A stretch of DNA of 64,000 bases, taken from positions 1 through 64,000 of the forward strand of contig JACOEL010000008.1 of assembly GCA_024998625.1 (NCBI GenBank), written 5' to 3'. The stretch's first letter is position 1. Each line of letters opens with the position of its first letter. This document shows, piece by piece, positions 4,758 through 64,000 of the stretch. Made by a program: the position numbers and the translations under genes. The notes under the pieces were generated by a model. It saw only the letters and a list, made by a program, of their open reading frames with translations, had not been told where the DNA came from and made no database searches. This DNA comes from Nitrospira sp. (lineage in GTDB: Bacteria; Nitrospirota; Nitrospiria; Nitrospirales; Nitrospiraceae).

Positions 4758-5924
4758 TTAACAGCGCGTCAGTAGTTTCTCATTCCGGTTCCATTGCGAA
4801 ACCGTGCCGCTGTTGTCGGTCAGTTCAAGCTTGTCCTGCGCCGACACCCGTACAAACATGGGAGGAGTTTTGCTTTGAGGGACGACCAAGCGAAACCGAT
4901 CCTGCTCTTTCTCGATGCGACCAGACTGCGACGTTGCCTTGTAGAATTCCGAAACGTTGGCCGACGTGATCGTCCAGACGAACTGTTCTTGCCGATCGAC
5001 GAACTTGGCGGAACCTTCCCAGGTTCCGACGAGAGAGGGATCGACCGGTGGCAGCCGTTTGACGGCGACTTTGCGCGGGACGGCTGCAAATGATTGCCAG
5101 AGTAGCGGGTCGAATTTGTTCGGTCCCTGATTCTTGGCGAGTTTGTCCCAGGTGACGCTGAGAATGCCCGTGGTCGAGAAACGGTCGTTCCCGGCTACTT
5201 GATAGGTTCCGTGCAGAATCTCTTGATAGGATTCCGCCTGCCAGCGTCCCCGGTCTGCGGTCACCGTGCCCGGCATCAATACGGCAGTCGTCAGGGACCA
5301 GGTGCCGCCTTCGCTCAGCGCGAGATGGCCTTTCCCATACATCAATCCGACGGGTGGGCACCCATACCAATCACCGGCCCATTGGGATGGAGTGGCGGTC
5401 AGCCCCGGTTCGGTTAACCCCGTCGGCCCGCTGCGAAGGGGACCGCCGAGTCTGGTCGCGGCGACCTTGGCGAGTTTGGTTACGGCCGCCTGCGCGTCGG
5501 GCTGTTTCGAGGACGAGAGCGACAGCGTGACCAGCGCATCAGCCTTGAGGAATGTCAGCTGAATTCCACCGATAGGCGACCGCAGGGTAAAGGCACCATC
5601 ACCGACCCCGGGAACCGGCTGGTGACCGGCCTTTGAACGCTGGTCGTGAAACAGAATTTTTGTGTCTCCGTCAGGACCGGGGTTCAGTTCCACCGTCACG
5701 GTTTCTTGTGGATTACGTTTCGCCTGGTAGAGGCACTTCCGGTCGTTTTGGCGCAAGCCAGGCGTGACAGGGGTGCCGATGGCTAATTCGACTTCGGCCT
5801 CTGTCACGATCAAGCAGGCGTTGAGATTGGATGAGATCACGTCGGAGGATTGTGAACAACCGAGCATCGCCGCCCCGGCTAGCAAGAGGCCCAGGAGCGG
5901 TCGTATCAGGGAGAAGTACGCCAT
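4758..5924 (-). CDS. Putative lipoprotein, function unknown
   Basis: The 388-residue protein has a signal peptide ending in a lipobox-like AAMLGC, with the acylated Cys near residue 23. The mature protein contains two Cys in its first third (ACLIV and RKCLYQ). This is followed by a part rich in Thr, Gly and Trp with WAGDWYGCPPVG and GTWEGSAKF, which suggest repeated lipocalin-like or DUF-type beta domains. No enzyme motif was seen. It lies upstream of the small secreted protein on the same strand. Confidence 0.65.
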   Translation of the reverse strand: MAYFSLIRPLLGLLLAGAAMLGCSQSSDVISSNLNACLIVTEAEVELAIGTPVTPGLRQNDRKCLYQAKRNPQETVTVELNPGPDGDTKILFHDQRSKAGHQPVPGVGDGAFTLRSPIGGIQLTFLKADALVTLSLSSSKQPDAQAAVTKLAKVAATRLGGPLRSGPTGLTEPGLTATPSQWAGDWYGCPPVGLMYGKGHLALSEGGTWSLTTAVLMPGTVTADRGRWQAESYQEILHGTYQVAGNDRFSTTGILSVTWDKLAKNQGPNKFDPLLWQSFAAVPRKVAVKRLPPVDPSLVGTWEGSAKFVDRQEQFVWTITSANVSEFYKATSQSGRIEKEQDRFRLVVPQSKTPPMFVRVSAQDKLELTDNSGTVSQWNRNEKLLTRC

Positions 5925-14578: not shown

Positions 14579-15121
14579 ATGAAGTTCTGCAGCGAGTGCG
14601 GGGCCGGGCTGTCGAAAAAAATACCTCCCGGCGATAACCTGCCGCGGTTTGTGTGCGAGAGCTGTCAAGTCATCCATTATATCAATCCGAAAATCGTCGC
14701 GGGCTGCATTCCTGAGTGGGAAGATAAGATTCTGCTGTGCCGAAGGGCGATCGAACCGCGCACAGGCCATTGGACCTTTCCCGCCGGGTTCATGGAGATC
14801 GGGGAGAGCACCGAGCAGGCGGCCATCCGCGAAACGTTTGAAGAGGCGCATGCCGACGTCGAGATTACATCCCTCTATGCCGTCTTGAGTCTGCCGCGTA
14901 TCAGTCAGGTCCACATGATCTTTCGCGGCTCCATGCGCACCCGGGAGTTCAAACCCGGCACGGAGAGTCTCGATGTGCAACTGTTCTCGCTGGAGGACAT
15001 TCCCTGGGATGATCTGGCCTTTCCCGTGATCACCGAAGCCCTTGAACGCTACGTCGCCGATGTGGCCCGTGGCGCCTTCTCCATGCATTTCGGCAGCGTC
15101 TTCCCCCGGATGAAATCGTAA
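14579..15121 (+). CDS. Nudix hydrolase with N-terminal zinc ribbon
   Basis: The 180-residue protein starts with a zinc ribbon (CSECG and CESCQ) and continues with a Nudix fold. The Nudix box reads [22 protein letters not shown], canonical except that the final conserved Gly is His. This architecture is seen in NADH pyrophosphatase-like and ADP-ribose pyrophosphatase-like Nudix enzymes; the substrate cannot be read from sequence. It needs Mg2+ through the box glutamates. Its start lies 34 bases from the divergent rlmL-like start. Confidence 0.88.
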
Positions 15122-15127
15122 GCGGGC

Positions 15128-15247
15128 GTGAAACGTGAAATGTGAAACGTAAAACGGTCACCCGGGACCGTGACGCGGGGCTCATCACGTTCGTTGGTGA
15201 TCCTGTTGCGCAGTTCGTGATCATCTCCGCACGCGATACGTTTCACC
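15128..15247. repeat. Repeat of the GTGAAACGT family with inverted ends
   Basis: The stretch begins with tandem GTGAAACGT-like words and ends in GATACGTTTCACC, the inverse of the left edge. It occupies most of the space between the convergent Nudix gene and the small minus-strand gene that ends at 15253. Related words occur at 1686, 16126, 46628 and 48770. It could serve as a bidirectional terminator. Confidence 0.5.
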
Positions 15248-15252
15248 GGGCT

Positions 15253-15561
15253 TCAGTTGCTGCTGGGTATGATGAGCCCCAACTCCTCCGCCGGTGGATG
15301 CACGAAGGTGAATCCCTTGTCCGTCTGAAAGTCTACGGTCATTCCGTTTGTGCGGTGCACGCTCGCCCGATCCAGCGCCACGGTGAGGCCTTCAAAGTGC
15401 TGCACCTCATCCTCTTCCTGCGCAGCAGGCTCCAGGGTAATCGAGAGGGACAGGCGTTGCGCATCCACGTCGCGCAGCGTAATCCGTACGACCGGATCGT
15501 CCGGATGTTCCTCGATCAGCTTGCGCAACCGTTCGATGGCGGTCCAGGTCAGATTCAGCAT
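15253..15561 (-). CDS. HesB/IscA-like protein lacking the cluster cysteines
   Basis: The 102-residue protein has the fold pattern of the Fe-S biogenesis (HesB/IscA) family: N-terminal LTWTAIERLRKLI, central VRITLRDVD and RLSLSITLEP, then EGLTVALDRAS, GMTVDFQTDKGFTFVHP. The family's three cluster-binding cysteines are missing; there is no Cys at all. It therefore cannot act as a standard A-type carrier and may be a structural relative with another role. It begins two bases after the stop codon of the upstream toxin gene, so it probably belongs to that operon. Confidence 0.7.
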   Translation of the reverse strand: MLNLTWTAIERLRKLIEEHPDDPVVRITLRDVDAQRLSLSITLEPAAQEEDEVQHFEGLTVALDRASVHRTNGMTVDFQTDKGFTFVHPPAEELGLIIPSSN

Positions 15562-55038: not shown

Positions 55039-58000
55039 GTGAGGATTGAACGAAGATTCACCAAGCGTGGGCAGAGCCCCTATGAGGGTCTTGCGTTCGT
55101 AAAACGTTCCTCGGAGATCCGGAATCCAGACGGATCGACCGTGTTTAAATTAGACCATATCGACATCCCGGAACATTGGACGCAACTGGCGATCGATATT
55201 CTGGCGCAAAAATATTTCCGGAAGGCCGGAGTCCCGCAAGTCCATGAGGACGGCACGCCGGTGGTGGACGCCGCAGGCAAGCCTGTGCTCGGCGGGGAGC
55301 GCGACTCCCGCCAGGTGTTCAACCGGCTGGCCGGTTGCTGGACCTTCTGGGGCAAGAACCACGGCTACTTCAAAACACCGGAAGATGCGACTGCCTTCTA
55401 TGACGAGATGTGCTACATGCTGGCCCACCAAATGGCGGCGCCCAATAGTCCCCAGTGGTTTAATACGGGACTGCATTACGCGTATGGGCTTTCTGGACCG
55501 GCGCAGGGCCACTTCTATGTCGACCCGAAGTCCGGCGAGGTCGTCCGGGCGACGAATGCCTTCGAGCATCCGCAACCGCACGCCTGTTTTATCCAATCGA
55601 TTGAAGACGACCTGGTGAACGAGAACGGCATCATGGACCTCTGGGTCCGTGAGGCCAGGCTGTTCAAGTACGGGTCCGGCACGGGCACCAACTTCTCGCG
55701 GTTGCGCGGAGACGGTGAATCCTTGTCGGGCGGCGGTCGCTCCTCCGGTCTCATGTCGTTCCTGAAGATTGGCGATCGTGCGGCCGGGGCGATCAAGTCC
55801 GGCGGAACAACCAGGCGCGCAGCCAAGATGGTCTGCCTGGATCTCGATCACCCGGATATCGAAGAGTTCATCGACTGGAAAGTGGTGGAAGAGCAGAAGG
55901 TGGCCGCCATGGTCACCGGTTCCAAGATTTGCGCGCAACGGCTGAACGCCGTGCTCAAGGCCTGCCTGCTGGTGGATGCGCAGGGCTTGGGCCAAGTCGA
56001 ACTGGATATGAAGAAGAACCAGGTACTGCGGGATGCCGTGTCGGCGGCCCGGCGCGATATGGTGCCGGAAGCCTATATTCACCGCATGTTCGACTACGCG
56101 AAACAGGGCTATACGCATTTTGTCTTTCACGAATACGACACCAACTGGGACGGCAAGGCCTACCAGACAGTCTCGGGGCAAAACTCCAACAACAGCGTGC
56201 GTATTCCGAACGGGTTCTTCGACGCATTGGAGCGGGATGGTGACTGGGAATTGCGCCGCCGGATCGACGGCAAGATCAGCAAGATCGTTAAGGCCCGTGA
56301 CCTCTGGGACAAGATTGCCTGGGCAGCCTGGATCTGCGCCGATCCCGGAACCCAATACGACACGACGATCAACGAGTGGCACACCTGTCCGGAAGACGGG
56401 CGGATCAACGCCTCCAATCCCTGTTCCGAATACATGTTCCTGGACGACACGGCTTGCAACCTGGCCTCGTTGAACCTCGCCAAGTTTTTTAATGTGGAAG
56501 GGGAGTTCGACCTGGATTCGTTTCGCCATGCTGTGCGTCTATGGACTGTGGCGCTGGAAATCAGCGTGTTGATGGCCTCGTTCCCCAGCCGCGCGATCGC
56601 GCAAAAGAGTTATGAGTACCGGACGCTGGGATTGGGATATGCCAACCTTGGCACCATCCTCATGAAGCAGAGCATTCCCTACGATTCACCGAAGGCGACA
56701 GCGATTTGCGGCGCGATCACGGCGATCATGACCGGCGAGTCCTATGCGACCTCGGCGGAAATGGCGGCGGAGATTGGCCCGTTCCCGGGCTACAACCGGA
56801 ACCGCGAAGCGATGTTGCGTGTCATCCGGAATCACCGGCGGGCGGCCTACAGCGCGGCGCATGAAGAGTATGAAGGCCTCACGATTCTACCGACGTCGAT
56901 TCAACCGGAGCATTGTCCGCCGGCCATGTTGCTGGCGGCGCGACGCGCCTGGGATCGCGCCTTGGAATTGGGTACGGCCTATGGATTCCGCAATGCGCAG
57001 GTGACCGTCATTGCGCCGACCGGCACGATCGGCCTGGTCATGGATTGCGACACGACCGGCATCGAACCGGATTTCGCCCTGGTCAAGTTCAAGAAACTGG
57101 CTGGCGGCGGCTACTTCAAGATCATCAATCAGAGTCTGCCGCCGGCCTTGCAGGCGCTCGGGTACACCGAGGCCCAGATCCGGGACATCGGGGCCTATTG
57201 CGCGGGACATCAAACCTTAAAAGGCGCGCCCTTCATCAACCACGAAGTGTTGCGTCAAAAAGGGTTCGACGATGCGGCGTTGGAGCGGCTGGAAGGGTCG
57301 TTGGCGCAGGCGTTCGAAATCCAGTTCGTCTTTAATAAGTATACGTTGGGAGAAGACTTCTGCCGACAGAAATTGGGCATCAGCGAAGCGCAGCTGGCGG
57401 ACCCGACCTTCAACATGCTCAAGCACCTGGGCTTTACCCAGGAAGATGTGGCGGCCGCAAACGATTATTGCTGCGGCACCATGACGGTCGAGGGCGCGCC
57501 GCACCTCAAGCTCGAGCACCTGCCGATTTTCGATTGCGCCAACCGTTGCGGCAGGATCGGCCAGCGGTATATCGCCGTCGATGCGCATATCCGCATGATG
57601 GCGGCGGCGCAACCGTTTATCAGCGGTGCGATCAGCAAGACCATCAACATGCCGGCCGATGCCACGCTGGAAGATGTGAAGGCGGCGTACCTGTTCGCGT
57701 GGAAGAGCATGGTCAAGGCCGTAGCGCTGTATCGCGACGGGTCGAAGCTGAGCCAACCGCTGAATGCCTCCTCCGACAGCGGCAAGGGGGCGGAAGCGAC
57801 GCCCAGTGTCATGACCGTGGCTGAGAAGGTTGCCGAGCGCGTGCTGGTTCGTTACCTCCATAAACGTCGGTCGCTCCCGGCGCGACGCAGCGGGTACACG
57901 CAGAAAGCCATCATCGGCGGGCACAAACTCTATCTTCGCACCGGCGAATATGAGGACGGCACGCTCGGCGAAATTTTCCTGGATATGCACAAGGAAGGCG

Positions 58001-58581
58001 CGGCCTTCCGCAGCTTGATGAACAATTTCGCCATCGCCATTTCTCTTGGCCTGCAGCACGGCGTGCCGCTGGAGGAGTTCGTCGAAGCCTTCGTGTTCAC
58101 TCGCTTCGAGCCGAACGGGCCGGTGAAACTTAACGATCGCATCAAGATGGCGACGTCGATCATCGACTACATCTTCCGCGAACTCGCGATCACGTATCTG
58201 GAGCGGACCGATCTGTCGCAGGTGCGTGAAGAGGACCTGCGCATGGATTCGATGAAGAAGGATGAGCAGGATCCCGAATGCGTGGATGAAGAGGCTGACA
58301 TGACCGCGCTCGCCAAGTCGTCGATCCTCACCGAACATCTGCCCGTGCGACGCAACGGCATGAATGGCGGCAACGGCCATAGCCACAGACCGGGAACCGG
58401 CAGCGTCGCGCACAAGGTGGAATTGAAGCGCGAGACCGTTACGGTCACCTCGGTGCGCCAGGAGGCCAAAGAGAAGGGCTACGAAGGCGATCCTTGCCAG
58501 AATTGCAAACAGTTCACCCTGGTGCGGAACGGAACCTGCCTCAAGTGCATGAGCTGCGGAGAGACGAGCGGCTGTTCGTAA
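55039..58581 (+). CDS. nrdJ: Adenosylcobalamin-dependent ribonucleotide reductase
   Basis: The 1180-residue class II reductase makes deoxyribonucleotides without oxygen dependence, using B12 to form the thiyl radical. Landmarks: substrate/cluster region [20 protein letters not shown], active loop [20 protein letters not shown] with radical Cys and Glu, and [26 protein letters not shown] domain near [14 protein letters not shown] and a C-terminal Zn-ribbon CQNCK...CLKCMSCG for re-reduction follow. GTG 55039 follows AAGGAGGAACCA. It depends on cobalamin supply. It appears monocistronic. Confidence 0.94.
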
Positions 58582-58590
58582 TGTGGAGAA

Positions 58591-58650
58591 AAATAAACTT
58601 GTTAACTGGAAAATAAAGTCGTTCACCAGCAAATAAATCTGTTTACTGCT
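58591..58650. repeat. Three 20-bp tandem units after nrdJ
   Basis: Three exact-period units begin AAATAAACTTGTTAACTGGA, AAATAAAGTCGTTCACCAGC and AAATAAATCTGTTTACTGCT. They share AAATAAA, GTT and AC at fixed places. The stretch marks the change from GC-rich core sequence to A/T-richer accessory DNA. Confidence 0.6.
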
Positions 58651-58676
58651 AAAGGGGGTGCTTATTGGAAAAAACC

Positions 58677-58855
58677 ATGGAATTCGCAACGATCAAGCTT
58701 CGATGTCCTAGATGCAGAAATACAGTTATCCAGACGGCTCGGGAGCGTGATGGGGGCTGGTAACAAGATGTAAAGCTCTACGGCGCATCGGCAATTATCT
58801 CGAAGTCCAATGTCGCTGTGATTCTTGGATTAGGATTCCACGGGAAGTTATTTAG
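58677..58855 (+). pseudogene. Frameshifted zinc-ribbon fragment (Com-like)
   Basis: The first frame gives MEFATIKLRCPRCRNTVIQT and stops after about 28 codons. A shifted frame continues with RCKALRRIGNYLEVQCRCDS and WIRIP before a stop at 58853-58855. Together the two halves carry four CxxC/CxC-type Cys pairs, like small Com-type zinc ribbons of phages, but a frameshift separates them. Could also be chance in A/T-rich DNA. Confidence 0.35.
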
Positions 58856-58902
58856 CAGGCAGTAATCGTTTAGGTCGCAGAGGCACCGTCAGTGTAACGC
58901 AG

Positions 58903-58950
58903 AGGCCGCGACTACCTTAGGTGAACTAGGGTGGGTGCGGCCTTTTTTTT
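58903..58950 (+). terminator. Intrinsic terminator with eight T residues
   Basis: AGGCCGC (58903-58909) pairs with GCGGCCT (58937-58943), followed by a run of T to 58950. The stem is short with a long loop but the T-run makes it a good terminator on the plus strand. What it ends is unclear; the only candidate upstream is the zinc-ribbon fragment or a small RNA. Confidence 0.55.
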
Positions 58951-59063
58951 GGTGCTCATGGCAGGAATACCACCTCAAACTGTTGCACGCCACGACTCAA
59001 AATAGGGAGGGACTCCAGTGCACTTGCAACGCGAGAGCATGGAGACCAGAAATAATTTTAGGT

Positions 59064-59186
59064 ATGAAGGCAAAACAGAGGATGGAGCACAAAGAAGTTT
59101 TTCAGGCTGGCCGACTGTTACTGATGGCTAACGCCATCAAGTTTAGTGAGCAAAGCAAAGGAGTGAGAATTAGCGAAGTGGAGTAA
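59064..59186 (+). CDS. Possible 40-residue peptide upstream of the HNH-SAVED gene
   Basis: The frame from ATG 59064 encodes MKAKQRMEHKEVFQAGRLLL and continues MANAIKFSEQSKGVRISEVE. It looks protein-like but has a weak ribosome-binding site and no known relatives. It lies 38 bases before the Cap5-like gene. The rest of 58582-59224 holds only the repeats, the fragment and the terminator. Confidence 0.3.
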   Translation: MKAKQRMEHKEVFQAGRLLLMANAIKFSEQSKGVRISEVE

Positions 59187-59224
59187 CGTAATTTGAGCGA
59201 GAAAAGGGGGCTGGTGAACATCGA

Positions 59225-60367
59225 ATGAATCCATCGATGCGGTTGGCTAGGAAAGTGCCTTGCGCAACGGAGAGGGAATTGTGGGCAAGGGCAGCGGGAC
59301 GCTGTCAGTTCAATAGCTGTAACCGAATTCTGTACAAATCACCCATCACCCAGGAACGTGTTCATATTGCCGAGAAGGCTCATATTTATTCCTTTTCCGC
59401 CGGGGGGCTTCGCGGGCAGGGGCCATTCAAGAATCATAAAGAAAAGCTCAACGAAATCGATAATTTGGTTTTAGTGTGTCACGACTGCCATCGCATCATC
59501 GATAAGGAAAACGACGGTGGCCGCTACCCGGCCAGTCTTATCCAGGTATGGAAATCTGAGCATGAACAACGAATCGCTATTGTGACTGGGGTGGCGCCAC
59601 ACAAAAAGTCAACGGTCGTGCTGTATGGTGCCAATATTGGTGATGAAGCGTCGCCCTTGCATTCCACGCAGGCACAATTAGCCATGTTCCCCCACTCATA
59701 TCCCGCAGACGAAAAGCCTATTTGTCTGAGTATGAGCTGGGAAGGGAAGGATCATCAGGCAGATTACTGGAAAACAGAAGAGAAGAACCTTTGCGCAGGA
59801 TTCGATCGATATGTCAGGCCGCGCATTGGAGAAAGTACACACTTCTCCGTTTTCGGCCTTGCGCCGATTCCTCTTCTGATACGACTCGGGACATTGTTTA
59901 CAGATAAAGTTCCGACCCAGGTGTACCAGTTACGACGTGAGCCACAACAAACTTGGCAGTGGAGTCAGGCCTTGTGCGACACGGACTATTACATACGACG
60001 TCCATCAACATTCAGGCACAAACCAGCTCTGATCATTTCCCTGAGTGCTGCAATTTCAAGGCAACGCGTCATCGCCATTCTTGGTGAAAAGGTAACGATT
60101 TGGGAACTCGGGGTGGGGTCCCCACACAATGATTTTCTTCGGACCCGCGTTCAGTTGTCTAAATTCAGGAACCTAACGCGACAACTCATGCTCGAGATAG
60201 CGAGTCGCCATGGAAATGAGATGCCATTAGCGATTTTTCCAGCGATGCCAGTGGCGGCGGCAGTTGAATTTGGTCGTGTCAGAATGTCGAAGGCTGACAT
60301 CCCATGGATTATTTACGATCAGAACAAGATGACGGGAACGTTTACAAAGGCCCTGCACATCAAGTGA
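59225..60367 (+). CDS. cap5: Cap5-like HNH endonuclease with SAVED domain
   Basis: The 380-residue protein joins an N-terminal HNH nuclease (CQFNSCNR, then HIAEKAHIY, then NLVLVCHDCHRIID) to a C-terminal SAVED domain with the family mark FPAMPVAAAVEFGR near residue 337. In CBASS immunity, Cap5 binds a cyclic nucleotide made by a CD-NTase through SAVED and then degrades DNA. The partner gene starts seven bases downstream but is cut off before its active site. The effector itself looks intact: the HNH ligands and full SAVED length are present. Composition is lower in GC than the core. Confidence 0.88.
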   Translation: MNPSMRLARKVPCATERELWARAAGRCQFNSCNRILYKSPITQERVHIAEKAHIYSFSAGGLRGQGPFKNHKEKLNEIDNLVLVCHDCHRIIDKENDGGRYPASLIQVWKSEHEQRIAIVTGVAPHKKSTVVLYGANIGDEASPLHSTQAQLAMFPHSYPADEKPICLSMSWEGKDHQADYWKTEEKNLCAGFDRYVRPRIGESTHFSVFGLAPIPLLIRLGTLFTDKVPTQVYQLRREPQQTWQWSQALCDTDYYIRRPSTFRHKPALIISLSAAISRQRVIAILGEKVTIWELGVGSPHNDFLRTRVQLSKFRNLTRQLMLEIASRHGNEMPLAIFPAMPVAAAVEFGRVRMSKADIPWIIYDQNKMTGTFTKALHIK

Positions 60368-60374
60368 GGTTGAG

Positions 60375-60602
60375 ATGACAGATATCCAGCGCGAAAAGGT
60401 ATTACTGGAACTTGCCAAGGCTCTGGGCATACCAGACACGGCCCATGAAGCCGCGGAGTTTCGCTATCATGATCTAGGCGAATGGCTTCGTGACGATTCG
60501 AAGGCAAAAAGCGCTCTCTATCAGCCGTTTGTCTCCCCACAAGGTTCATTCAGATTGGGGACGGTCACACCTAGTAATCGTCCCATGGTTGGACGTTACT
60601 AG
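60375..60602 (+). pseudogene. Truncated CD-NTase of a CBASS operon
   Basis: Only the first 75 residues remain, starting MTDIQREKVLLELAKALG and reaching the nucleotidyltransferase mark FVSPQGSFRLGTVT. This motif normally comes right before the strand with the two catalytic Asp residues. Then the sequence changes to unrelated SNRPMVGRY and stops. A full CD-NTase has about 300-400 residues, so about 80% is gone, including the catalytic DxD. It cannot make a cyclic nucleotide. The stop lies inside a hairpin and directly abuts the next truncated gene. Confidence 0.8.
60571..60602. repeat. Hairpin at the CD-NTase deletion junction
   Basis: CTAGTAATCGTCC (60571-60583) pairs with GGACGTTACTAG (60591-60602), 12 bp with one bulged T and a 7-base loop. 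It covers the point where CD-NTase similarity ends. It may be a remnant of a mobile-element end or a scar of the rearrangement. Confidence 0.55.
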
Positions 60603-60842
60603 TCAACAAGCCAAATGGTCGAGTGCTGAACGGAGATTATGGATCACATCACCTAGGTCTGCGCTCCAATGCTCTGGAGTTGGTTCTGTGATCCGTACTT
60701 TATGTACGATGTCACCTGTGTCTGGTTCTTCCTCCTTCTCCACCCGTAATGGATATTGCACAATATGCGAGTGGATTTTCTGTTGAAGGTCTTCTAGATG
60801 TTTCTTAGCTCGATCGATCTTGATCGCAATACTTTTAGTCAT
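60603..60842 (-). pseudogene. Truncated unknown gene facing the CD-NTase fragment
   Basis: The 79-residue product (MTKSIAIKIDRAKKHLEDLQ) ends at DVIHNLRSALDHLAC, where longer relatives are remembered to continue past NLRSALDHL for another 100 or more residues. The stop codon touches the stop of the CD-NTase fragment. Both genes are thus cut at the same place. Function is unknown. The frame extends to 60875 upstream, but ATG 60842 is preferred. Confidence 0.5.
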
Positions 60843-60875
60843 AGAGGGCCTGCTACGTGGGTCTGGGGAACGCAT

Positions 60876-61298
60876 TTATACAGGTGCTCGGACCTGCGGT
60901 TAAACAAAACGGTCTTTGATGAATCGATGCACTCGGAATTTCCACACTAAGCCAAAGAACTCGAAAAAATAGGGCATCTTGGCTCATCATTTGTTAAACC
61001 CATCATCGGCTAACCTCTCACACCAGGGGAGACGCAACTTGGTGCGGCTGGAGTATGGTTAGGCCATCTGCTGGACTGAACCCCGCCTTAGGAAATAAAG
61101 TGTCGACCCCACCATGAGTCCATTTATTGCCTCAGTCGATGCAGAGACCTTCTGCCGATCACGGCCTGTCCACTCCCATTTCTTCTTCAAAAGACCCGCA
61201 CTGTAATGTTTTGGCTTCGTCTCCGTCTATAGGGTTGTACGAGCGATTTGATGAGCATGGGGCTCAGTCCATTCGTTCACTAAACTCGGGGGGCCATC
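60876..61298. other. 423-base stretch before copZ, no gene
   Basis: A plus-strand frame from 61127 overlaps copZ and is not coding-like. The stretch should hold the copper-operon promoter; no clear CueR or CsoR operator was identified. The A/T-rich accessory composition fades into GC-rich core DNA here. Confidence 0.4.
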
Positions 61299-61517
61299 AT
61301 GAAAGATTTGATTTTGAAAATAGACGGAATGAGCTGCGGGCACTGTGTTGGACAGGTTACGAAGGTGCTGACCCAACTTGATGGCGTGCAAGTCAAGGCC
61401 GTTAAAGTTGGTGAGGCCTTTGTGGCGTACGATCCGGGAGAAATTACACCGGCGGACATCGCGAGGGCGGTAAACGAGGTGGGGTATGAGGCCGAGCCGG
61501 CCGGGAGGGTTGCATGA
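61299..61517 (+). CDS. copZ: Copper chaperone CopZ-like HMA protein
   Basis: The 72-residue heavy-metal-associated domain has the metal-binding GMSCGHC near the N-terminus and the betaalphabeta pattern ([34 protein letters not shown]). It would carry Cu(I) to the ATPase encoded next. It overlaps copA by four bases. The HCVGQV part and lack of His tail fit CopZ. Confidence 0.88.
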
Positions 61518-63895
61518 ACAAGGTCGCTTTGTTGGAGCAGAAGGTTGCCCGACCTGTCAGTACGGAGGCTTCTGAGGCTATACAGCTTCGGAGGGTGACG
61601 ATTCCAGTCCAGGGCATGACCTGCGCCGCTTGCCAGAGCCGCGTCCAGCGGGCGGTGCAGAGAGAAGCAGGGGTTTTCGATGCGTCCGTCCATCTCATGT
61701 TGAAGCAGGCCGTCATCACCTATGACTCCGCCGTCACTTCGGAGGCATCGTTAGTGGAGGCGATCAACCGGACGGGGTATGAAGCCAAACCGGCGACTCA
61801 GAGCCCAAGCTCCTTCGATGATCAGCTAGGACAGGATCGGGCACAGGAAGAAGAATACCTTCTGGCGCGGCGTAAGGCTTTGTGGAGCGGCGCCGCCGGC
61901 CTGTTGGCGATGGCGTTATCAATGCCGCTCATGGTGGGGGGTGAACCAGATAGTCATGCAGTCGGCTTCTTCATGCTTTTAATAATGAAGGTCGCCTCCT
62001 GGCTGTCGTTCGCGACTCCAGTCGTTTGGTCCTACGTTCTGATGGGGCTCACGATAGCGGTGATGGGGTCGAGCGGGCGGCATTTTTATGTGCGGGCCTG
62101 GTCTGCGCTTCGGCATCGCGCTGCTGATATGAATACGCTGATTGCGGTGGGAACCGGCGCGGCCTTTGTCCATTCCGTCCTGGCCACTGTCATTCCCGAG
62201 TTCTTCTTGAATCACGGTGTCAGGCCGCATGTCTATTACGAAGCCGTGGTGATGATTATTGCTCTGATTCAGACGGGGCATACGCTGGAAGTCCGTGCCA
62301 AGCGACAGACCTCGGCTGCCCTGAGTCGGTTAGTGGCATTGCAACCCAGGACGGCTCGCGTTGTGCGCGAGACCGTCGAGATTGATGTGCCCGTCGAAGC
62401 CGTGCGGAGCGGAGACATTGTTGTGATCCGGCCGGGCGAGCGAATCGCCGTGGACGGCCACATTCTGTCCGGCAAGAGTAGCGTCGATGAATCCATGTTG
62501 ACCGGTGAAGCGATGCCGGTAGAGAAGCAGTTGGGGGATCGGGTTATTGGTGGCACGATTAACAAGTCCGGCGCGTTCCGCTATCAGGCGACCACGGTGG
62601 GCGCAGACAGCGTGCTGGCCCATATCGTCAAGCTGATGCGGGATGCACAAGGCTCCCGAGCGCCGATCCAAAAACTGGCCGACCAAGTCAGCGCGGTCTT
62701 CGTGCCGATCGTGATGTCTCTGGCGCTTGCGACCTTCGTGGCCTGGTATGTCGCGGTGGATCAGGCGTCTGCGATGCAAGCGTTCTCTGCGGCCATAGCT
62801 GTGCTGATCATTGCGTGCCCTTGCGCCATGGGACTCGCGGTACCCACGGCAATGATGGTGGCAACGGGAAGAGGGGCAGAGCAGGGCATCTTGATCAAAG
62901 GTGGAGAAGCGCTGCAGCGGGCCGCTGGGATTACCACGGTGGTCCTCGACAAGACAGGCACGATCACGGAGGGAAAACCGGCTGTCACCGATGTAATCCG
63001 GGCCAAGGGCAGTAAGTGGTCCGATCGTGAATTTCTTCGTCTCGTGGCCTCCTTGGAGGCCTTGTCGGAACATCCTGTAGCGGAAGCGATCGTATCTGCG
63101 GCCCGAGAGCAGATGCTTCCTTTGGCTGAGGTGGAATCCTTCGAGTCCATGGCCGGGAGAGGGGCCATAGGTGTGGTAGAAGGTGCAGCGATCCTTGTTG
63201 GGAATAAAGGTCTGATGTCCGACTATGCGGTCTCGTTGGAATCGTTCGTTGACCAAGCCGACCGGTTCGCCAGAGCAGGAAAGACGCCGGTATATGTAGC
63301 CGTCAACGGCAAGCTGACTGGACTTGTTGCGGTGGCTGACCCTATCAAGGGAACGTCACACGAGGCAATCAGACAGCTTAAACAAATGGGATTAACTGTT
63401 GTCATGCTGAGCGGCGATCACGAGCGAACAGCGCAGGCTGTGGCGAGCCAGGTCGGCGTCGATCGGATCGTGGCGGGGGTGTTGCCGGAGGGTAAGGTGG
63501 CGGAGATCCGGCGTCTGCGTGAGGCGGGGGAGGTCGTCGCCATGGTGGGAGACGGTATTAACGATGCGCCGGCGCTAGCACAGGCCGACGTGGGAATGGC
63601 CATTGGGACGGGCACAGATATCGCGATCGAGGCGAGTGATGTCACACTCATGCGAGGCGACCTGCGAGGAGTCGCCTCGGCGATCAGACTTGCCAAGAAG
63701 ACGATGCTCGTGATGAAGCAGAATTTGTTCTGGGCGTTTATTTATAACGTGGTTGGTATTCCTATCGCGGCCGGTGCGTTGTATCCGTTCACGGGTCTGA
63801 TGTTAAGTCCTGTACTGGCGAGCGCAACAATGGCCTTCAGCTCCGTCAGCGTCGTCATGAACAGCCTACGGCTACGGAGAGTGCAGATAAACTGA
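61514..63895 (+). CDS. copA: Copper-exporting P-type ATPase CopA
   Basis: The 793-residue P1B-type ATPase has one N-terminal HMA domain (GMTCAAC, residue ~36). TGEAMP is in the actuator domain, the Cu-binding CPC in [11 protein letters not shown], phosphorylation DKTGTITEG, the HP motif LSEHPVAEA, and [11 protein letters not shown]. The CPC and downstream motifs indicate Cu(I) (or Ag(I)) export. The start overlaps copZ. Usual CopA often has two HMA domains; the separate CopZ may compensate. Confidence 0.93.
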
Positions 63896-64000
63896 TCAGG
63901 TCACGTGGAGTGAGTAAGGCTCCGTCATATGAAACACCATGATTCGTATTGGCAGGCTTTGTAGATCATCTCCCCATCTGCGTTCGGTTGCTCGGTTTCT
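63896..64000. other. Right edge, no complete gene
   Basis: The last 105 bases after copA hold no recognised gene start. No terminator was seen. Confidence 0.4.

What the first reader, a model, noticed from the sequence alone, without database searches (positions are those of the whole stretch)
59225..60842. Decayed CBASS locus: intact Cap5-like effector, decapitated CD-NTase
Seen: an apparently full HNH-SAVED protein is followed 7 bases later by a 75-residue CD-NTase start that ends right after the GSFRLGTVT motif, before the catalytic Asp pair. Known: in CBASS the CD-NTase makes the cyclic nucleotide that activates Cap5. Inference: the locus cannot signal by itself. Either the effector is being lost, or it answers a nucleotide made by a CD-NTase elsewhere in the genome.
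Basis: partly seen in the sequence, partly recalled or inferred. Interest (0 to 1): 0.8.

Follow-up and report, generated by a model that had tools for sequence, protein, structure and literature searches.

The report
Broken phage-defence genes inside a transposon
A bacterium carries an anti-phage alarm system whose DNA-cutting half looks intact but whose signal-making half has been cut off, probably by a deletion inside a Tn7-like jumping element that also lost its own moving machinery; all the parts are of known kinds.

Summary
Window 59225-60367 encodes a complete HNH-SAVED nuclease (Cap5-like). Seven bases later a 75-codon ORF matches only the first ~60 residues of CD-NTases and stops before the catalytic Asp pair. 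It is a truncated gene: in a same-genus genome at the same site, and in a same-family genome, the CD-NTase is 391 and 398 aa and is followed by an E2 gene.

The locus is the left arm of a 13,952-bp Tn7-like element inserted at the nrdJ stop codon: 16-bp terminal inverted repeats, TnsB-type repeats at both ends, the 5-bp duplication CGTAA. The right end is outside the window (contig position 72533). A complete same-genus genome has a 45-kb relative at the same codon with tnsABC, two tniQ genes and a different, complete CBASS. Here the core (cyclase 3' part, E2, tns genes) is missing, and a second truncated gene abuts the stub. One internal deletion is the simplest cause (inferred). An E-clade-like cyclase with its own patatin effector exists elsewhere in the genome but is unlikely to feed Cap5. 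Reads could not be checked. Known kinds, degraded; modest interest.

The parts
55039..58581 (+). nrdJ-like 1180-aa ribonucleotide reductase gene (name by recall), whose stop codon is the insertion site
   Evidence: ORF; 99% identical end in G008 and matches in 27 of 29 same-genus genomes
58577..58581 (.). left copy of the 5-bp target duplication CGTAA, keeping the nrdJ stop; right copy at contig 72534-72538, outside the window
58582..58597 (+). left terminal inverted repeat, 16 bases, exact inverted copy at contig 72518-72533
58590..58649 (+). three 20-nt TnsB-type repeats
   Evidence: direct repeat family; found by a matrix built without own units
58582..64000 (.). part of the 13,952-bp Tn7-like element (contig 58582-72533) that lies in the window
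58677..58855 (+). small CxxC-protein gene at the left end, frameshifted here; open 59-codon ORFs in G008 and G004
59225..60367 (+). Cap5-like HNH-SAVED effector, open reading frame intact
60375..60602 (+). 5' stub of a CD-NTase gene (75 codons, about 65 homologous)
60570..60605 (.). junction: imperfect inverted repeat, with 9 bases (60589-60597) equal to the DLDV codons of the relative
60603..60842 (-). 5' fragment (79 codons) of an unrelated gene whose Streptomyces relatives are 300 and 301 aa
61299..63895 (+). copper-chaperone-like ORF (61299-61517) and P-type copper ATPase-like ORF (61514-63895), right-arm cargo (names by recall)
   Evidence: ORFs only

Best explanation
A type II CBASS of the E2-only kind (Cap5, CD-NTase, E2) rode as left-arm cargo in a Tn7-like transposon that inserts at the nrdJ stop codon. 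In this genome the element lost its middle. The left break lies in the CD-NTase gene just before or at the catalytic motif; the right break lies in an unrelated opposite-strand gene. Gone are most of the cyclase, the E2 gene and the transposition genes. Left are an element that cannot move itself, an effector that can be made but gets no signal from its own locus, and metal-efflux cargo. Shown: ends, target duplication, empty and filled sites in relatives, the truncations, and no TnsB or E2 match in the assembly. Inferred: that one deletion caused all the losses, and that Cap5 is silent.
For: Intact Cap5 + CD-NTase + E2 at the same site in G008 and elsewhere in G029. Ends: 16-bp inverted repeats, CGTAA on both sides; five TnsB-type sites found in 80 kb by a matrix without own units, against 4 hits in five shuffles together. 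Empty site: in G015 the nrdJ end is directly followed by the sequence found after the right end here. G004 element at the same codon with CGTAG on both sides, tnsABC, two tniQ. TnsB matches 3 of 29 same-genus genomes, not the own; E2 matches G008 and G029, not the own; PDLC00780 finds only the stub in the own genome. Two genes truncated towards the same point. The own efflux operon is 76% identical in DNA to that of G008.
Against: No parent element with the opposite-strand gene intact was found: that gene matches none of 60 relatives, so the right breakpoint has no reference and several successive events are possible. Join of the two G008 contigs is inferred. Absence from an assembly of 37 contigs is not proof of absence from the cell, although it is rated 100% complete. 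Two same-genus loci (G022, G005) begin TGTGGAGAA behind the nrdJ stop without any repeats, so a few bases of the supposed left tip might be host sequence or an old scar. The inverted repeat at the junction is unexplained.
Confidence: 0.8

Rival explanations
1. The same end state came about by several successive losses or by replacement of the core with foreign DNA, not by one deletion.
For: The junction carries an inverted repeat and an out-of-frame remnant of the catalytic codons; the small CxxC gene is frameshifted independently; the opposite-strand gene is in none of 60 relatives.
Against: Both truncated genes point at one junction and everything missing lies between the two arms in the G008/G004 order.
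Confidence: 0.2
2. The junction is an assembly error and the CBASS is complete in the living strain.
For: No reads were available; the junction has an imperfect inverted repeat.
Against: Both element ends with the same CGTAA lie on one contig; the 468-base junction stretch has one match in the genome; the missing cyclase part, E2 and TnsB are not found elsewhere in the assembly.
Confidence: 0.07
3. Cap5 is kept in use and answers a nucleotide made by another cyclase, for example the one on contig C24.
For: A complete CD-NTase with a full-length PADLOC match exists; Cap5 is open, with the tested residues kept; five of nine Cap5 proteins in another study responded to 3',3'-cGAMP (PMC8568899, passages).
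Against: That cyclase is closest to RmCdnE (cyclic UMP-AMP) and has its own effector; AsCap5 and LlCap5 are highly selective; 17 of 18 plasmid Cap5 loci inspected have their own CD-NTase.
Confidence: 0.06
4. The 75-residue product is a complete functional short protein.
For: It is an open reading frame starting 7 bases behind Cap5.
Against: Homology covers only the start of cyclase families 388 to 542 positions long; relatives are 391, 398 and 412 aa; the last ten residues match neither G008 nor G029.
Confidence: 0.01

Closest known systems
CdnG-Cap5 CBASS of Asticcacaulis and Lactococcus (PMC8568899, passages read)
   Same: HNH-SAVED effector next to a CD-NTase; 7rwk is the best PDB match; the five residues tested or marked in that study are kept
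   Different: Here the CD-NTase is a 75-codon stub and no E2 or E1-E2 gene follows
Type II CBASS with a stand-alone E2 gene, as in G008 and G029
   Same: Same effector and cyclase family, same order, same genomic site in G008
   Different: Cyclase truncated, E2 absent from the own genome
Tn7-like transposons with defence cargo (PMC8649781, passages read)
   Same: TnsB-site arrays at both ends and fixed site; that paper lists CBASS as Tn7 cargo and Nitrospirae among hosts. 5-bp duplication as in Tn7 (recalled)
   Different: This copy has no tns genes. nrdJ as target: the words nrdJ and reductase do not occur in the main text of PMC10293859; in PMC8649781 'reductase' occurs once, as dihydrofolate reductase; supplements not readable

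Membership tests
CBASS (working system) | CD-NTase with catalytic residues | tested here: not met
   stub ends before the Asp pair; no other PDLC00780 match in the genome
CBASS (working system) | effector beside the CD-NTase | tested here: met
CBASS type II | E2 or E1-E2 (Cap2) gene | tested here: not met
   E2 of G008 has no match in the own genome, matches in G008 and G029 as control; E1-E2 not searched
Cap5 | N-terminal HNH and C-terminal SAVED domain | tested here: met
   (HNH just under cut-off)
Cap5 | ligand-site and stacking residues | tested here: met
   D227, R238, R319, K356, D358 stand where AsCap5 has D220, R231, R310, K347, D349, by my reading of the alignment; invariant in 8 aligned sequences, P0001 included
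Cap5 | DNA cleavage on 3',2'-cGAMP | not testable with these tools
   needs protein
Tn7-like transposon | TnsB-site arrays at both ends and terminal inverted repeats | tested here: met
Tn7-like transposon | 5-bp target duplication | tested here: met
   CGTAA here, CGTAG in G004
Tn7-like transposon | fixed attachment site behind a conserved gene | tested here: met
   repeat arrays directly behind the nrdJ stop in 4 of 27 loci; both ends and duplication seen in two of these
Tn7-like transposon | tnsABC and tniQ/tnsD genes | tested here: not met
   no TnsB match in the own genome, G004, G008, G025 match; none recognised by eye in the element's ORFs; TnsA, TnsC, TniQ not searched on the own genome. 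Met in G004. A non-autonomous remnant is therefore the claim

The most novel reading that the evidence does not exclude
Orphan Cap5 left behind by element decay is a recurring, selected state: a sleeper nuclease re-armed whenever another CBASS or an incoming mobile element supplies the matching cyclic nucleotide.
Probability: 0.06. Interest if true: 0.6.

Novelty: new member of a known kind. Interest (0 to 1): 0.36.

Why it matters
It turns an odd truncated cyclase into a traceable event: a defence cassette beheaded when its carrier transposon lost its middle. The nrdJ stop codon emerges as an attachment site where Tn7-like elements carry different CBASS modules in one genus (Cap5 with CD-NTase and E2 in G008; patatin with CD-NTase, Cap2 and Cap3 in G004), so cassette turnover there can be counted. 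It also offers a natural orphan Cap5 for testing whether effectors can work across systems.

Tried and rejected
A second genomic copy of the junction or of the cyclase: none found. An integron or recombinase site as source of the inverted repeat at the junction: does not fit by eye; the fold is unremarkable (z -1.28, 24 of 200 shuffles fold as well). Accelerated decay of Cap5: 31 residues changed only here against 19 only in G008, and 15 against 8 at sites where two outgroups agree; neither is clear-cut by my own binomial arithmetic (about 0.12 and 0.21). First codon positions changed more here (47 against 17), second positions not (17 against 20), which I leave open.

Is Cap5 often found alone? 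I inspected 18 of the 111 plasmid records with a match, chosen from the better matches and several closely related: H1, H2, H6, H7, H11, H15, H21, H23, H27, H28, H30, H32, H33, H37, H41, H42, H9, H10. 16 have an annotated nucleotidyltransferase in the neighbourhood (in H28, H30, H32, H33 and H42 cut by my stretch, but listed with 1047-1239 bases in the record); in H7 the end of a CD-NTase is read from the DNA at the record start; H6 has none. The annotated names were not tested one by one.

Right ends of the G008 and G027 elements: not found in the stretches scanned. Papers: one search gave two papers with both nrdJ and Tn7, judged from the listing not to concern attachment sites; (6 papers) and the 10 listed of 582 held nothing on orphan or decayed CBASS, judged from the listings. 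I do not claim that the nrdJ site is unpublished. No structure was predicted.

Full report
OBSERVATION. The ORF at 59225-60367 (380 aa) is a full HNH-SAVED protein: Pfam SAVED 5.2e-42, with the Pfam HNH hits just under their cut-offs, PADLOC PDLC00739 over nearly the whole profile, solved relatives led by 7rwk. The ORF at 60375-60602 begins 7 bases later and matches only the beginning of CD-NTase families and of PDB 9woo. It ends before the catalytic pair.

TRUNCATED, NOT SHORT. Cap5 was sought in 61 genomes, the own included; 4 matched, one of them (G016) only over the HNH part. In G008 (same genus, 73%) and G029 (same family, 65%) Cap5 is followed by CD-NTases of 391 and 398 aa and by E2-like genes of 239 and 240 aa. 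PADLOC E2 model PDLC00859 matches both at about 1e-81; Pfam found nothing for them. A Desulfobacterales contig has a 412-aa CD-NTase. The G008 cyclase is closest to 9woo, then to a CdnG structure.

A TRANSPOSON END. In G008 the operon lies directly behind nrdJ, as here. I read the DNA behind the nrdJ stop in 27 loci, one for each of the 27 of 29 same-genus genomes that matched. Four begin with TGTGGAGAAAAAT or nearly so and go on with three 20-nt repeats; with a matrix built each time without the locus tested, 4 of 27 loci have such repeats. Two others (G022, G005) begin in a similar way without repeats. In the own contig a matrix without own units finds five sites in 80 kb: three at 58590-58649 on the + strand and two at 72394 and 72506 on the - strand; five shuffles gave four hits in total. 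The second cluster ends in the inverted copy of the left end. The ends share 16 exact bases, and CGTAA stands on both sides. In G015 the nrdJ end (matching 58500-58581) is directly followed by sequence matching 72536-72608, that is, the empty site. The element is therefore contig C37 58582-72533, 13,952 bp. The duplication covers the nrdJ stop codon, which is thereby kept.

THE FAMILY. In G004, a one-contig genome, the element behind nrdJ runs from 468967 to 423877 with CGTAG on both sides. Its left arm carries patatin, CD-NTase, Cap2 and Cap3 genes, then TnsA, TnsB, TnsC and two TniQ proteins, one strongly TnsD-like (TnsB by rve and Mu C-terminal hits under their cut-offs). G008 has TnsB at 70% identity on another contig, followed by ORFs that look like TnsC, two TniQ and metal-efflux operons (by eye); that the two G008 contigs join is inferred. 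Its last efflux operon is 77-90% identical in protein and 76% in DNA to the own one. The own element thus has the two arms of this family without the core.

WHAT WAS LOST. TnsB matches 3 of 29 same-genus genomes (G004, G008, G025) and not the own. The E2 protein matches G008 and G029 but not the own genome or G004. CD-NTase model PDLC00780 finds only the stub in the own genome. Where the stub ends, an opposite-strand ORF begins that stops after 79 codons, while two Streptomyces relatives are 300 and 301 aa: its missing 3' part lies towards the same junction. One deletion between these two genes would explain every loss. Against this, the opposite-strand gene was found in none of 60 relatives, so the right side has no reference. 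At the junction nine bases equal the DLDV codons of G008, out of frame, and 60571-60602 forms an imperfect inverted repeat, so a small local rearrangement came with or after the loss. The small CxxC gene at the left end is frameshifted too.

IS CAP5 STILL A NUCLEASE? The ORF is open. Five residues discussed for AsCap5 (PMC8568899, passages) are kept, by my reading of the alignment, and are invariant in the 8 aligned sequences. Residues changed only here number 31, only in G008 19; third codon positions change most in both, first positions more here (47 against 17). Nothing shows clear decay, but a recent loss would look the same.

A SIGNAL FROM ELSEWHERE? Pfam PF18144 finds one other CD-NTase, on contig C24: 295 aa, full-length PADLOC match, beside a patatin-type effector, hence a separate, apparently complete CBASS. 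It is closest to 6e0k/6e0l; PMC10442399 (passages) names 6E0L as RmCdnE and says that RmCdnE makes cyclic UMP-AMP. PMC8568899 (passages) reports about 10,000-fold preference of AsCap5 and LlCap5 for 3',2'-cGAMP over the other two cGAMPs, but also that five of nine Cap5 proteins tested elsewhere responded to 3',3'-cGAMP. Cross-talk is unlikely but untested. Only two CD-NTase models were run on the own genome, so a cyclase of another clade could have been missed.

KNOWN OR NEW. Tn7-like elements with CBASS cargo are published (PMC8649781, passages). The words nrdJ and reductase do not occur in the main text of PMC10293859; in PMC8649781 'reductase' occurs once, as dihydrofolate reductase. Supplements were not readable. 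I file this as a degraded new member of known kinds. The organism was not identified.

ORPHAN CAP5 ELSEWHERE. Of 18 plasmid Cap5 loci inspected, 17 have a CD-NTase (details and caveats under tried and rejected). In Rhizobium sp. Khangiran2 plasmid 2 the Cap5 ORF is intact, the gene before it matches its relative only from residue 9 on (75%, unannotated), and no CD-NTase shows: none by tblastn in 7.1 kb and none by name in the annotated first 25 kb; the rest of that plasmid was not searched. The same state thus seems to have arisen at least twice.

Noticed in passing
L001 (own genome contig C24, 11819-15004), ORFs 463-1452 and 1456-2343: A second, apparently complete two-gene CBASS: patatin-type effector (PDLC00755) and a 295-aa CD-NTase closest to 6e0k.
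   Followed up: partly
L071 (LR723669.1, Rhizobium sp. Khangiran2 plasmid 2), 2521-4116: Another Cap5 with an open reading frame and no CD-NTase nearby; the gene before it is cut at its 5' end.
   Followed up: partly
L050 (G027) about 15121-15370; L033 (G024), L019 (G022), L041 (G005) just behind the nrdJ stop: Possible old scars of the same element family: G027 keeps repeats without a nearby right end, G024 has left-end gene remnants without repeats, G022 and G005 only the tip motif.
   Followed up: partly
L081 (Salipiger abyssi pPABY3) 1422-2892: The Cap2 (ThiF) gene of a Cap5 CBASS is split by an annotated IS5-family transposase, and TniQ and TniB genes lie nearby: another damaged CBASS.
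   Followed up: no
L011 about 4935-5129 (G008): A small ORF (YjzC-like by recall) stands between the left-end gene and Cap5 in G008; I saw no counterpart in the window by eye.
   Followed up: no
window 60571-60602: Imperfect inverted repeat exactly at the junction of the two truncated genes; origin unknown.
   Followed up: partly
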